Of a stretch of 47,842 nucleotides of DNA, positions 3,881 to 13,148 are shown piece after piece. Both the position numbers and the translations under genes were made by a program. How positions within the stretch are numbered: the first letter of the stretch is position 1; each line of letters starts with the position of its first letter. Origin of the DNA: Spirobacillus cienkowskii. Lineage in GTDB: Bacteria; Bdellovibrionota_B; Oligoflexia; Silvanigrellales; Silvanigrellaceae. Below the pieces are notes generated by a model. That model ran no database searches. It was not told the DNA's origin and was given only the letters and a program-made list of their open reading frames with translations. The stretch is taken from the NCBI GenBank assembly GCA_003339605.1, contig QOVW01000068.1, forward strand, positions 1 to 47,842. The letters run 5' to 3'.

Positions 3881-5383
3881 TTGGAAAATAATGAAGAAAA
3901 AAAATCAAGTAATATTGTTTTTTACGGAACATTTTTTATAGATAATAATGAAATTGCTGTGGATGCGAATTATATTCAAGAAGTCGTTCATTTTCCTAAA
4001 AAATTTATAAAACTTCCTTTATCACCCAAATACTTGATTGGAGTCTTTAATCTGAGAGGCTCAATTATATCAATAGTTAATTTGTCAGAATTATTAAAAT
4101 TTAATGAAGAACAAAAAGAAAAAAATCAAAAAATTGCAATTATTAATAAAAATAACGAAAAAGTAGGCATCACAATCGATGATACCGGTGAAATTATAAG
4201 ACTCAGAAACAAAGATAAAGAAGTTTTTAATTATCCGGATAAGTCACAAATTAAACTCATTAATGCTGCAATAAAACTGAATGATGGAGAAAGAATAATA
4301 CAAGTACTTGATCCTTTTGATTTATTCAATCAAGAAAATATTCCAAAAGTAAAAAAAGATTCCAATACCGATCAACTTAATGAAAATCAAGTAAAAATTA
4401 AAAATATCTCAATAAAAAAATGTATTTCATTTCTATTAGGTCATGCTAAGCTGGCATTTGATATTACAAAAATTGATGAAGTTGTTAAAGTTATGGAAAT
4501 TGAAAAAACAAAATTCGTTTCTAAACAGTGTATAGGAATAATTACTCTCAGAGATAAAAAAATTCCAATTATTGACTTTGCTAAATATTTGAATATAAAT
4601 GACAAAAAAGAAGAAAAATCAAATGAAAATACAATTTTAATATTAAAAAAGGATGAAAATAAGTTTGGCTTACTAATTGACAATTTAGAAAGTATTATTT
4701 CTTATAATGAAGAAAATTTAAAACAAATTTCAGAGTTTATAATAAAAGATAAAAACTTTTATAAGGGCTGTTTGGTTAGAGAAGATCAAGATGATGTTTT
4801 AATTTTAGAACAAGATAAACTATTTATAAAAGAGGAAGTTTCTGAAATAACAGAAGGATATTCAAAATTATACAATCACAACGAAAGTGATAATGAAAAA
4901 AGGAGAGTAAGAAAAATAAATCTTTATATCACATTTAAAATTAGTAACTTATTTGCAATAAATCTTAAAAATATCACAGAAATAATTAACAAACCAAAAC
5001 AATATATTACACCTCCTGGATCACATGAATTTATAAAAGGAATGGTAAACATAAGAGGAGAAATGGTCGCTATAATCGATACCAATAAATATTACCAGAT
5101 AGATAAAACATCTAATACAGAAGATGAAAAAATACTCATTATTCATCTTAATGAAAAAAAAGTTGGATTAATAATAGATAATCCAGAAAGTATTTTGCAT
5201 ATTGATGAAAATGACAAAACTTTATTACCAAACTATATTATTAAAAACTCTCATAATAATTTTCATGAAGATGTTAAAGAAATAATTGGAGTTTCTAAAG
5301 AAACCGATGATTCTATTATTGTCCTAGATGTAGAAAGAATGATCAATAGACTTATTTCCAAAAAAATAATTGAAAATAAATAG
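3881..5383 (+). CDS. Chemotaxis coupling protein with three CheW domains
   Basis: This 500-residue protein is three CheW-like domains in a row, at about residues 12-150, 174-315 and 348-492. Each has the CheW core: a hydrophobic first strand, a V-x-x-V/I segment and the loop before the second barrel (IGVFNLRGSIISIVNL in domain 1, IGIITLRDKKIPIIDF in domain 2, KGMVNIRGEMVAIIDT in domain 3). CheW domains couple MCPs to CheA. The start is TTG 3881 with GGAG eight bases upstream; the nearby ATG at 3891 is in another frame. The gene is very AT-rich and codes many Lys, Asn and Ile residues. No CheA or CheY domain is present. It stops four bases before the convergent binding-protein gene. Confidence 0.85.
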   Translation: MENNEEKKSSNIVFYGTFFIDNNEIAVDANYIQEVVHFPKKFIKLPLSPKYLIGVFNLRGSIISIVNLSELLKFNEEQKEKNQKIAIINKNNEKVGITIDDTGEIIRLRNKDKEVFNYPDKSQIKLINAAIKLNDGERIIQVLDPFDLFNQENIPKVKKDSNTDQLNENQVKIKNISIKKCISFLLGHAKLAFDITKIDEVVKVMEIEKTKFVSKQCIGIITLRDKKIPIIDFAKYLNINDKKEEKSNENTILILKKDENKFGLLIDNLESIISYNEENLKQISEFIIKDKNFYKGCLVREDQDDVLILEQDKLFIKEEVSEITEGYSKLYNHNESDNEKRRVRKINLYITFKISNLFAINLKNITEIINKPKQYITPPGSHEFIKGMVNIRGEMVAIIDTNKYYQIDKTSNTEDEKILIIHLNEKKVGLIIDNPESILHIDENDKTLLPNYIIKNSHNNFHEDVKEIIGVSKETDDSIIVLDVERMINRLISKKIIENK

Positions 5384-9641: not shown

Positions 9642-9941
9642 TTAAACATAAAAACCAAGATGCGCTGCAATCGTTTGAATCGCAATCATTAAACTTCCTA
9701 TCGACAAAATTAGAACAACAGGTGACAGATCATAATACCCCTGTTGACTTCTCACTAAAAGTCGTGGAAATTTTCGTGTTATATAACGACACGGAGGAAG
9801 AGTGATTGCATTTAAAAAACCGACAATAGGATTTAGCGGATTTGCTCCCACCAAACTTAAAACCCCAGAAATAATTAGAGTTAACATATAGAAATATAAA
9901 AGATAATATGCAATTTTAAAAAAAATTTCAATGAGTATCAT
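9642..9941 (-). CDS. YggT family membrane protein
   Basis: This 99-residue protein has an N-terminal hydrophobic helix with the segment LLYFYMLTLIISGVLSLVG, a loop ending NPIVGFLNAITLPPCRYI, and a second hydrophobic helix after DLSPVVLILSIG. That is the single-repeat YggT/YlmG pattern (NP-x-x-x-x-x-x-x-x-T-x-P, then D-x-SP). These proteins are linked to cell division, shape or osmotic functions; the exact role is unknown. The ATG has a strong GGGGAG site seven bases upstream. Confidence 0.85.
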   Translation of the reverse strand: MILIEIFFKIAYYLLYFYMLTLIISGVLSLVGANPLNPIVGFLNAITLPPCRYITRKFPRLLVRSQQGYYDLSPVVLILSIGSLMIAIQTIAAHLGFYV

Positions 9942-10105
9942 AACTCTCCCCTGGAGAAAAATCTAACAGAATATAAACAAAAGTATTCTAATAAATAATT
10001 GGCAAACATTAAAGCAAAAATTATACAGTCAAATTCAATAAATATAGATTTTTACTTTAGCACCGAAAAGCTTAACGTCAGTTTCTATTTAAAAGGTATA
10101 AGCCA

Positions 10106-11110
10106 GTGAAAAACGCAAATATAGTGCTACCTCCAAAAACTATCGTCGTGCAAGAAGGGGACGAAACAAAAGGAATTTATGTTATCCAAGAAGGAAAGGT
10201 AGAACTATTTAAAATTATAGAGGGGTTTGAAATTTCTTTAGGAGAAATTTCAAAGGGTCAAATCATTGGCTTAAGCTCTTTAATTAACAGAGAAAGACAC
10301 ATTGTGACTGCCAGAACTGTGGTTCAAACAGTCACACTTTTTTATCCTGTAGAAACAATTATACCTTTTTTTAATGAAGTAAATCCCATTGTGAGCATTT
10401 TTATTAAGTCGGCTTCAGAAAGAGTGAAGTACTTTTCACAGCAACTGATCGAAACAAAAAAGAACGAAAAAAAACTTATTAAAACGACTGGTTCACCACA
10501 TCAACATGCTTCGCAACTTGCATACCTTCTAGCTGGATTTATCCGTCAAGGCACGATTGAACATGACGACAACAAAATTTATCCTTTAAAATCTTTTTTA
10601 ATCAATGCAGAATTAATTCTAAATAAGAAGTTTGATTATTTAGAAAAAATGTTTAACTTATTTTCATCTGGTGGGTTAATTAAGATCGTATTTGATAAAA
10701 AATATGGGAATATTATTTTAAAACCAAACCCCCAATTAATAGAAGACTTTGCTGTTTACTCTGCTTCAATCGCCAAAAAAGGGATTGGAGGATTTATTCC
10801 AATTAAAAGTCACAAATGGATAAGTGGTCTCATTCGCATAAATAGGCGTTATAAAGAAAGCGAAGGCGTATTTTTAAAACAAACTTTTCCTGGACTGATT
10901 GGTAAAGAGCTTGGTCGCAACGATGGCGAAGAAATAATGATTCAACTGCTCTCTTTAAAACTTGTTCATGAAAAAGGAATCGATCAGCAAAACATGAAAA
11001 TTATCCTCAATGCCTCACAACTGCAAAAAAGAGTAATTTTCGAAAGTATTTCTCGAGGCGTTAATGACATTGACAAAATAACGACCCCAGAAAAAAAGAC
11101 CACCGAATAA
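10106..11110 (+). CDS. cNMP-binding-fold regulator, paralog A of CheV cassette
   Basis: Residues 8-105 form a CAP/cyclic-nucleotide-binding fold (VVQEGDETKGIYVIQEGKVEL, then the GQIIGLSSL and TARTVVQ segments). About 220 unrecognised residues follow. There is no CRP-type helix-turn-helix. The phosphate-binding cassette is degenerate: the usual GE before the arginine is replaced by GLSS, so ligand binding is doubtful. The C-terminal part is shared with the gene at 12183, including HxHxxQLAxLL at 132-142, LNKxFxYLEK, WxSxLxRI, GRxDGE and VFESI. The start is GTG 10106 with AAAAGG ten bases upstream. The gene lies just before cheV. The function is unknown; a sensory input to chemotaxis-like signalling is inferred from context. 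Confidence 0.75.
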   Translation: MKNANIVLPPKTIVVQEGDETKGIYVIQEGKVELFKIIEGFEISLGEISKGQIIGLSSLINRERHIVTARTVVQTVTLFYPVETIIPFFNEVNPIVSIFIKSASERVKYFSQQLIETKKNEKKLIKTTGSPHQHASQLAYLLAGFIRQGTIEHDDNKIYPLKSFLINAELILNKKFDYLEKMFNLFSSGGLIKIVFDKKYGNIILKPNPQLIEDFAVYSASIAKKGIGGFIPIKSHKWISGLIRINRRYKESEGVFLKQTFPGLIGKELGRNDGEEIMIQLLSLKLVHEKGIDQQNMKIILNASQLQKRVIFESISRGVNDIDKITTPEKKTTE

Positions 11111-11147
11111 TTTGCCCAACTCTAGAAATAAATTGAAGTTCCGATAC

Positions 11148-11170
11148 AAGCTATTAGCCAAATAGCTTTT
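11148..11170 (+). terminator. Weak hairpin with T tract between paralog A and cheV
   Basis: AAGCTAT and ATAGCTT form a seven-pair stem around a seven-base loop, with TTTT at its 3' end. It sits about 40 bases after paralog A and ends just before the cheV ribosome site (GGGAG). It could be a weak terminator or an attenuator that separates expression of the two genes. The stem is AT-rich, so termination would be inefficient. Confidence 0.4.
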
Positions 11171-11181
11171 AGGGAGTCAAC

Positions 11182-12186
11182 GTGGTTAATATCGGCAGAC
11201 CTATGTTTCAAGTAGGTAGCAACATCTTTGAGCTTATTGAATTTACAGTAACAAAGACCAACGCATCGCCGTCTTTTGACCGTAAAACACCTATTCTTTA
11301 TGGCGTTAATGTTGCCAAAGTGAGAGAAGTGATCCGTTTGCCAACAATTGTCCCTTGTTTAACAAGTACCCCCGAAGTTTTAGGTGTTTTTAACCTGAGA
11401 GGCGCTCCCATCCCCGCAATCCACCTTGCAAAAGCCTTAGGCTATAATGAAGAAGTTGTGACACCTTCAAGTCAAGTCATTGTGACAGAGTTTTCGAGTC
11501 GCAAAGCAGGTTTTGTTGTTGCAGGAACTCGGCGTATCCGTAGAGTCAGTTGGGACAAAGTCTTGCCACCAACAAGCGATGCATTCAATACAATCACAGG
11601 AATGATGCTTATTGAAAATCAAGATTTTATTTTTATCTTAGACTTTGAAAGAATTCTTTTAGATATAGAAGCGAGAAGCGGTGGCCAAGGAACCTCTTCG
11701 TTTGCGATAGAAAGTTCAATGCCTTTACCAAATTCCTTAAATGGTACTGCGCCAGCTGTTGGAGCTCCAATAAACTCAAAAAGACCTCTGATTATGGTTG
11801 TCGACGATTCACCAACTGCAAGAAGAGCAATATGCGAATTGTTACGGAGTATGCAGCTTGATATTATTGAATACACAAACGCCGAAACAGCATGGCGCGA
11901 ACTGAGTACCTGTGAAGACGGGTCTGATTTGAGCAAAGTGCAGCTGATTGTAAGCGATGTAGAAATGCCCAAACTCGATGGATATTCATTTGTCAAACGC
12001 ATTCGTGGCCACGAAAAACTCAAAAAAATGCCTGTTATTTTACACTCTAGTCTTACGGGTGATGTCAATCGCGATAGAGCAAAACAAGCAGGCGCAGACG
12101 CCTATGTTGGCAAGCTCAATCGGAAAGAAATTATTGAAGCACTGAAAGCAGCCTTACCACCTACCTGGAATGGAGCGTCATCATGA
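11182..12186 (+). CDS. cheV: Chemotaxis protein CheV (CheW-REC fusion)
   Basis: Residues 35-165 are a CheW domain (EVLGVFNLRGAPIPAIHLAK at about 65-84). After a linker, residues 202-325 are a response-regulator receiver domain. The acidic pair D208/D209, phospho-acceptor D259 (VSDVEMP), the Ser289/Ser290 position and K311 are all present, so it should be phosphorylated. CheV couples receptors to CheA and helps adaptation. The start is GTG 11182 with GGGAG upstream. Its stop overlaps the next start as ATGA, so the downstream cNMP-fold gene is translationally coupled. No CheA is in the window. Confidence 0.92.
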   Translation: MVNIGRPMFQVGSNIFELIEFTVTKTNASPSFDRKTPILYGVNVAKVREVIRLPTIVPCLTSTPEVLGVFNLRGAPIPAIHLAKALGYNEEVVTPSSQVIVTEFSSRKAGFVVAGTRRIRRVSWDKVLPPTSDAFNTITGMMLIENQDFIFILDFERILLDIEARSGGQGTSSFAIESSMPLPNSLNGTAPAVGAPINSKRPLIMVVDDSPTARRAICELLRSMQLDIIEYTNAETAWRELSTCEDGSDLSKVQLIVSDVEMPKLDGYSFVKRIRGHEKLKKMPVILHSSLTGDVNRDRAKQAGADAYVGKLNRKEIIEALKAALPPTWNGASS

Positions 12187-13148
12187 CGGCTCCAGACACT
12201 CTAACCTTCGCCCCAGAACAGGTTATTTTTAATGAGGGCGATAAATCTGATGGCATTTATCTGGTTCAAGAAGGTGAAATAGAAGTGTATCGTGTTCGTG
12301 AAAATATGCCTATTATATTAGGAAAACTGGTGGCTGGTGAAGTCCTTGGGACGTTAACAATTTTTTCTAATGAAACTCGTAAAGCATCTGCCCGTGCTCT
12401 CAAACAGACAACATTAGTTTTTTACCAAAACTCTGGAATGAGTGAATCTTTTAAAAATTTGCCAGGCTGGTGCCAAGCTGTCATTAAAGATGCACTAAGA
12501 CGTTTAAACCACGTGAATAATTTGCTGACCGAAACAAAGATCCATGAAAAAAACTTATTGCGAAGCATTGGCACATCGCATCATCACTCTGCACAATTGG
12601 CTTTTTTGCTATCGAGCTATGTAAAAAAAAATAGCCTAAAAAATGATGTCAATGTATCAATTTATCCTACATCAGATTTTTTAATTTATGCAGAAAAAAT
12701 TTTGAATAAAGATTTTAATTATTTAGAAAAAATATACAAATCTTTTATAGAATATGGGCTCGTTAAAGAGGTTGATGACAAAAAATTTGGAACAATTCTG
12801 GTAAATCCTAATGAATCTATGATTCATGATTTTGCCGTTTTTTCTATTGATGTGGTAAAAAAAGGACTTAATTTTTTTACTCCAAAAAAATTTCATCCTT
12901 GGATGAGCGCGCTCACGCGTATTAGTCGTAAAAATAATAATTTAGAAAAATTTAAGAGAGCGGATCTCGCATTGTTGTTGCAAACAGAAGTTGGACGTCA
13001 AGATGGAGAATCATTACTCACACAAATGCTCGATCATAAAATTATTGCTGAACAAAATGGCGAAATTACTTTTTCTGTCCTAAAACTTCATAAAGCCGTT
13101 GTATTTGAAAGCTTAGTACGAAGTATTAAAGATATAAAACCAGCTTAA
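12183..13148 (+). CDS. cNMP-binding-fold regulator, paralog B of CheV cassette
   Basis: This protein has the same architecture as the one at 10106. A cNMP-like barrel covers residues 8-100 (FNEGDKSDGIYLVQEGEIEVY), followed by the same C-terminal domain of about 200 residues with SHHHSAQLAFLL, ILNKDFNYLEK, HPWMSALTRISR, EVGRQDGE and VFESLVRSIKD. The Glu expected in the nucleotide phosphate cassette is again missing (VLGTLTIFSN). The ATG overlaps the cheV stop by four bases, which is strong evidence for one functional unit. No DNA-binding helix-turn-helix is obvious. The gene is convergent with pstB, leaving ten bases between them. Its function is unknown. Confidence 0.75.
   Translation: MTAPDTLTFAPEQVIFNEGDKSDGIYLVQEGEIEVYRVRENMPIILGKLVAGEVLGTLTIFSNETRKASARALKQTTLVFYQNSGMSESFKNLPGWCQAVIKDALRRLNHVNNLLTETKIHEKNLLRSIGTSHHHSAQLAFLLSSYVKKNSLKNDVNVSIYPTSDFLIYAEKILNKDFNYLEKIYKSFIEYGLVKEVDDKKFGTILVNPNESMIHDFAVFSIDVVKKGLNFFTPKKFHPWMSALTRISRKNNNLEKFKRADLALLLQTEVGRQDGESLLTQMLDHKIIAEQNGEITFSVLKLHKAVVFESLVRSIKDIKPA

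What the first reader, a model, noticed from the sequence alone, without database searches (positions are those of the whole stretch)
10106..13148. cNMP-fold / CheV / cNMP-fold cassette
Two paralogous proteins with an identical, unusual layout flank a CheV gene, and the second overlaps cheV by ATGA. Each has a cNMP-like barrel with its phosphate-cassette Glu missing and the same unknown C-terminal domain of about 200 residues, with conserved HxHxxQLAxLL, LNKxFxYLEK and GRxDGE motifs. I know of no described system with this set. Inference: a paired input module that feeds CheV in a chemosensory pathway, where the barrel may sense something other than cAMP.
Basis: partly seen in the sequence, partly recalled or inferred. 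Interest (0 to 1): 0.8.

Follow-up and report, generated by a model that had tools for sequence, protein, structure and literature searches.

The report
CheV-coupled CRP-like tandem-winged-helix regulators
Two duplicated regulator genes that flank a chemotaxis gene encode relatives of a solved Bdellovibrio protein, each with a cyclic-nucleotide-type barrel and two winged-helix domains, so the proteins are a known kind; what is new is that one of them has stayed joined to the chemotaxis gene cheV throughout one bacterial family.

Summary
In detail: A (10106-11110), cheV (11182-12186) and B (12183-13148, ATGA overlap) are real. A and B are 37% identical paralogues and both lack the phosphate-cassette Glu. 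The "unknown" C-terminal domain is two tandem winged-helix domains (AlphaFold pLDDT 90-92). Folded alone, its only strong PDB match is Bd2879 of Bdellovibrio (9SFA), a putative cyclic-nucleotide-binding transcription factor in which the same cassette residues are replaced. So A and B are new members of a described architecture.

The cheV-B pair occurs in all 5 genera sampled of the host's family (probably Silvanigrellaceae); 9 of 10 inspected junctions keep a 4-base overlap. A is a tandem duplicate of B found only in the host's genus; it has also lost the phosphate-binding Arg. Elsewhere in the class such proteins are not beside cheV. There cheV sits between a REC-PilZ gene and a CAAX-protease gene.

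FliA-like promoters precede A and cheV. Best reading: a CRP-like regulator made with CheV in the motile phase, acting on DNA, its barrel tuned away from classical cAMP binding. Direct binding to CheV is the most novel live alternative. New variant of a known kind; interest about 0.45.

The parts
10043..10068 (+). FliA/sigma28-like promoter in front of A: TATAG-N15-CCGAAA
   Evidence: Conserved in 5/5 genus genomes (CCGAAAA invariant); pattern scan; coordinates
10106..11110 (+). A: CNB barrel + C-helix + two predicted winged-helix domains, 334 aa (GTG start); genus-specific tandem duplicate of B; cassette Glu->Leu56 and Arg->His65
11121..11146 (+). FliA/sigma28-like promoter in front of cheV: TCTAG-N15-CCGATA, -10 box 41 bases before the start codon
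   Evidence: 5/5 genus genomes and two other genera at nearly the same distance; compare Bdellovibrio FliA consensus TTAAG-N16-CCGATA (PMC3627812)
11182..12186 (+). cheV: CheW domain + REC domain with the acidic pair D208/D209, phospho-acceptor D259 and K311 present
12183..13148 (+). B: CNB barrel (res 5-91) + C-helix (95-129) + wHTH1 (132-227) + wHTH2 (235-316); cassette Glu->Thr57, Arg66 kept; 4-base overlap with cheV
9642..9941 (-). YggT-family gene, divergent; conserved neighbour of the locus in most of the family, probably not part of the module

Best explanation
B is a CRP-like dimeric regulator of the Bd2879 type: an N-terminal cyclic-nucleotide-type barrel, a long dimer helix and two tandem winged-helix domains. 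In the family's ancestor it became translationally coupled to a CheW-REC CheV; in the host's genus it was duplicated to give A upstream. A FliA-like promoter before cheV, and another before A, make these proteins in the motile phase. Most likely B and A act on DNA as regulators of motility- or chemotaxis-phase genes, with the barrel sensing a ligand other than classically bound cAMP, or in A possibly no nucleotide at all. Shown: gene layout, overlap, family-wide conservation, predicted fold, cassette changes, duplication. Inferred: dimerisation, DNA binding, ligand, FliA control, target genes.
For: Fold: AF2 of B, pLDDT 90.3, barrel + long helix + two wHTH; C-terminal half alone pLDDT 91.6, and its only PDB matches below E 0.001 are the two chains of 9SFA/Bd2879 (1.0e-5 and 5.8e-5; next best 0.03). 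The full-length family profile matches 9SFA end to end (6-321 vs 4-333, E 4.4e-18). The Bd2879 paper describes NBD + HTH1 + HTH2, a putative transcription factor, with D54/Q55 and T65/S66 replacing the ribose- and phosphate-binding residues (PMC12750041). Conservation: cheV-B in every genus sampled of the family, 4-base overlap at 9 of 10 junctions. Homologues elsewhere in the class sit beside unrelated genes, as expected for regulators. Promoters. Tree: A + B of the genus form one clade, 100/99, and A and B each form their own clade. Chemotaxis exists in the host: 14 CheW-domain and 20 MCP matches.
Against: No DNA-binding evidence; the winged-helix domains are only mildly basic (HTH1 net 0 to +3, HTH2 +1 to +5 in A and B of the genus) and wHTH folds can be protein-interaction modules. 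By sequence alone the C-terminal half reaches 9SFA only at E 0.86, or a MarR protein at 0.11, and the TM-score to 9SFA is modest (0.53). A 4-base overlap with cheV fits physical partners or strict stoichiometry at least as well as a regulator and its neighbour. The promoter motif was noticed in these sequences first, so its statistics are partly post hoc, and no flagellin gene examined carries it at the scanned distance.
Confidence: 0.55

Rival explanations
1. B (and A) are direct protein partners of CheV: the tandem winged-helix part is a protein-interaction module and the barrel gates CheV's coupling of receptors to CheA.
For: Translational overlap kept across the family; fixed stoichiometry is typical of interacting partners; winged-helix domains only mildly basic; the whole locus and all CheW/MCP genes are absent together from the reduced genome G055; across the rest of the class cheV is also paired with another signal-type protein, REC-PilZ.
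Against: Homologues in the other families of the class are not beside cheV and one lies in a genome with no CheW or MCP match (G024/L048), so the C-terminal half did not evolve as a CheV-binding domain; G055 is only 72% complete.
Confidence: 0.25
2. cheV and B are merely co-transcribed: an operon formed by rearrangement in the family's ancestor and kept by drift or shared promoter use, with no functional link.
For: cheV is solitary here, away from the cheA-cheV-cheB type cluster on another contig; one linkage event suffices to explain the family pattern.
Against: The pair and its overlap persist while flanking genes change between genera, and B was then duplicated to the other side of cheV and kept.
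Confidence: 0.15
3. Classical cAMP receptors: A and B bind cAMP in the ordinary way despite the Glu change.
For: Host and nearly all relatives have class III nucleotide cyclase homologues; B keeps the cassette Arg.
Against: Glu is replaced in every member aligned; A has lost the Arg as well; in Bd2879 the equivalent residues are also replaced.
Confidence: 0.05

Closest known systems
Bd2879 of Bdellovibrio bacteriovorus (PDB 9SFA, CASP16 T1298; PMC12750041)
   Same: Same order of domains: NBD barrel, C-helix, HTH1, HTH2; ribose-binding Glu position replaced; co-linear profile match over the full length and best structural match of the C-terminal half.
   Different: No disordered zinc-finger tail in A/B; B keeps the cassette Arg that Bd2879 lacks; low sequence identity (about 12-16% in the structural alignments); whether Bd2879 is linked to a cheV is not known here.
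Bd1971 (PDB 6HQ2-6HQ7), cAMP-gated EAL phosphodiesterase
   Same: Among the closest solved NBDs by sequence (E about 5e-21).
   Different: EAL output domain instead of two winged-helix domains; canonical cassette with Glu and Arg-Ser; binds cAMP.
CRP/FNR family transcription factors
   Same: Barrel, long dimer helix, winged-helix output.
   Different: One winged-helix domain in CRP, two here; cassette Glu missing; no Pfam CRP-type HTH match in the C-terminal half.
REC-PilZ / cheV / CAAX-protease cassette of other Oligoflexia families (found here)
   Same: Homologous solitary CheV next to a signal-type protein.
   Different: Partner is REC-PilZ upstream and a CAAX (Rce1-like) protease downstream; no CNB protein.

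Membership tests
Bd2879-type CNB-tandem-wHTH regulators | N-terminal CNB barrel and long C-helix | tested here: met
   Pfam PF00027 in both; model of B
Bd2879-type CNB-tandem-wHTH regulators | Two tandem winged-helix domains after the C-helix | tested here: met
   AF2 of B full length and C-terminal half; Foldseek hits below 0.001 are the 9SFA chains only. A inferred from 37% identity over its whole length; its own model was not run
Bd2879-type CNB-tandem-wHTH regulators | Sequence homology of the C-terminal half to Bd2879 on its own | tested here: inconclusive
   Profile A4 reaches 9SFA at E 0.86, co-linear; without the C-helix no match to 9SFA
Bd2879-type CNB-tandem-wHTH regulators | DNA binding | not testable with these tools
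   Only putative for Bd2879 itself too
Canonical cAMP-binding CNB domains | Cassette Glu that binds the ribose 2'-OH | tested here: not met
   L56 in A, T57 in B; replaced in all 24 aligned members
Canonical cAMP-binding CNB domains | Cassette Arg that binds the phosphate | tested here: inconclusive
   Met in B (R66), not met in A (H65), conserved as His in 5/5 genus A proteins
CRP/FNR family | Single CRP-type HTH (Pfam HTH_Crp) | tested here: not met
   No HTH_Crp match in A, B or any of 24 members
CheV | CheW domain followed by REC domain with phosphorylation residues | tested here: met
   PF01584 1.4e-25, PF00072 1.3e-17; D208/D209, D259, K311
Chemosensory input module | Physical or functional coupling to CheV/CheA | not testable with these tools
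   Only gene linkage and overlap tested

The most novel reading that the evidence does not exclude
B and A are nucleotide- or ligand-gated, DNA-binding partners of CheV, so that the state of the chemosensory array (through CheV's CheW and REC domains) and a second messenger are read together and passed directly to transcription; A, with both cassette residues lost, has become a ligand-free partner subunit.
Probability: 0.17. Interest if true: 0.75.

Novelty: new variant of a known kind. Interest (0 to 1): 0.45.

Why it matters
It gives the Bd2879 architecture, so far a single structure without a known function, a conserved genomic partner and therefore a testable pathway: chemotaxis through CheV. 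It also shows that a solitary CheV in Oligoflexia is kept next to signalling proteins of different kinds (REC-PilZ in other families, CNB-tandem-wHTH in this one), which suggests CheV as a place where internal signals meet the chemotaxis pathway.

Tried and rejected
Unknown-domain reading: rejected after AF2 and Foldseek. Pfam, NCBIfam and per-member Pfam scans of the C-terminal half gave nothing credible. Plasmids: no match. Tested whether the genes beside cheV in other families are degenerate relatives of A/B: no, they are REC-PilZ and a CAAX protease. Tested whether a third copy exists in the genome: three other CNB proteins found; the C-terminal profile gave no support in the reading frames checked, but for two of those loci the longest frame picked was not the CNB gene, and the B query itself matched only the barrel of the C38 protein. 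Literature for CheV with cyclic-nucleotide regulators or for the genes around Bd2879: nothing relevant.

Full report
What is there. Three genes on the + strand: A 10106-11110, cheV 11182-12186, B 12183-13148, B overlapping cheV by ATGA. A and B are paralogues, 37% identical over 318 residues. Pfam and NCBIfam recognise only a CNB barrel in A and B, and CheW + REC in cheV. The REC domain has its acidic pair, acceptor Asp and Lys.

Host. The genome is 2,736,227 bases in 126 contigs, matching the published 2.74 Mb draft of Candidatus Spirobacillus cienkowskii, a Daphnia pathogen (PMC6284087); a same-species 2.8 Mb single-contig genome fits the 2.81 Mb complete genome (PMC12321486). This identification is an inference from size and relatives. 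That paper reports flagellar and E. coli-type chemotaxis genes; here 14 CheW-domain and 20 MCP matches were found.

The C-terminal region. AlphaFold2 on B with 24 aligned sequences gives pLDDT 90.3: barrel 5-91, long helix 95-129, then two winged-helix units, 132-227 and 235-316. The C-terminal half alone gives 91.6. Foldseek of the whole model puts Bd2879/9SFA first (2.4e-16); of the C-terminal half alone, the two 9SFA chains (1.0e-5, 5.8e-5) are the only matches below 0.001, the next being 0.03. The full-length family profile matches 9SFA from 6-321 to 4-333, E 4.4e-18, but most of that score comes from the barrel: the C-terminal profile alone gives E 0.86, and without the C-helix only a MarR protein at 0.11. 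The structure paper describes Bd2879 as a putative transcription factor with an NBD, HTH1 and HTH2, and with D54/Q55 and T65/S66 in place of the ribose- and phosphate-binding residues of Bd1971 (PMC12750041). So the architecture is known; its function is not established.

The cassette. In all 24 aligned members the canonical Glu is replaced: Thr in all 11 B-type proteins of the family, Leu/Ile/Met in A, Val/Ser/Leu in the other families. The phosphate Arg is kept except in A, where it is His in 5/5 genus members. The missing Glu is therefore an old trait of the group, and the Arg loss is specific to A.

Distribution. Among 58 genomes of the phylum, all genus members with B also have A about 1.1 kb upstream of it; G055 (1.5 Mb, 72% complete) has neither, and no CheW or MCP match. 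In the four other genera of the family, cheV-B is present without A; in G050 (L042) the contig ends just past B, so cheV was not seen there, though its genus is represented by G048 and G049. Of ten junctions inspected nine keep the 4-base overlap (ATGA or GTGA). A tree places the genus A and B proteins in one clade (100/99), each its own subclade, so A is a tandem duplicate made in the genus; A has diverged less between species than B has. In other families of the class, CNB-tandem-wHTH proteins lie beside unrelated genes, for example SDR and KAS III genes, and also in G024, which has no CheW or MCP match.

cheV elsewhere. Of 14 cheV loci examined in other families, all 14 have a REC-PilZ-type gene upstream and 12 have a CAAX protease (Rce1-like) gene downstream. 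Pfam was run on a subset of these; the others rest on alignment. The solitary cheV of the window is closer to these (37-47%) than to the second CheV in its own genome, next to CheB (33%).

Expression. A TNNAG-N15-CCGA(A/T)A motif lies before A (10043) and cheV (11121), like the Bdellovibrio FliA consensus TTAAG-N16-CCGATA (PMC3627812). CCGAAAA and CCGATA are invariant in five genus genomes; CCGATA sits 36-41 bases before the likely cheV start in the genus and in two other genera. Similar motifs precede four MCP genes or their neighbours. In the window spacing 15 gives 5 hits against 0, 1, 0 and 1 for spacings 13, 14, 16 and 17, but two of the five are the sites that suggested the motif; of 32 gene starts checked, 4 have CCGAWA at that distance. 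This is suggestive, not proof.

How it works. I favour DNA-binding regulators made with CheV in the motile phase (0.55); direct CheV partners 0.25; mere co-transcription 0.15; ordinary cAMP receptors 0.05. Translational overlap argues for a tight link to CheV; the homologues' variety of neighbours and the CRP-like layout argue for DNA output.

Limits. No DNA-binding, ligand or interaction test is possible here. Bdellovibrionia could not be searched, so I cannot say whether Bd2879 is near a cheV. A's structure was not modelled on its own. Gene calls in other genomes are from a simple ORF script, so start codons are approximate. Host and taxon names are inferred.

Noticed in passing
window 3881-5383 (+): A 500-aa protein with three CheW domains, upstream of the finding.
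   Followed up: partly
L067:4-1887 (-), G000 contig 42: A CNB barrel fused in frame to what reads as an aspartase/fumarase-type enzyme, 628 aa open frame; the enzyme name is from reading the sequence, not from a family search.
   Followed up: no
L098-L111: Conserved REC-PilZ / cheV / CAAX-protease cassette in other Oligoflexia families; REC-PilZ is also present in genomes without CheW or MCP matches (G006, G023, G024, G025).
   Followed up: partly
window 10028-10032: A GTCAA block conserved in 5/5 genus genomes upstream of the A promoter; a possible regulator site.
   Followed up: no
L044, L046, L052: CNB-tandem-wHTH homologues repeatedly next to SDR and KAS III (FabH-like) genes, a possible local regulon.
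   Followed up: partly
L112:5412-6488 (-): A second CheV (358 aa) next to CheB in the same genome.
   Followed up: partly
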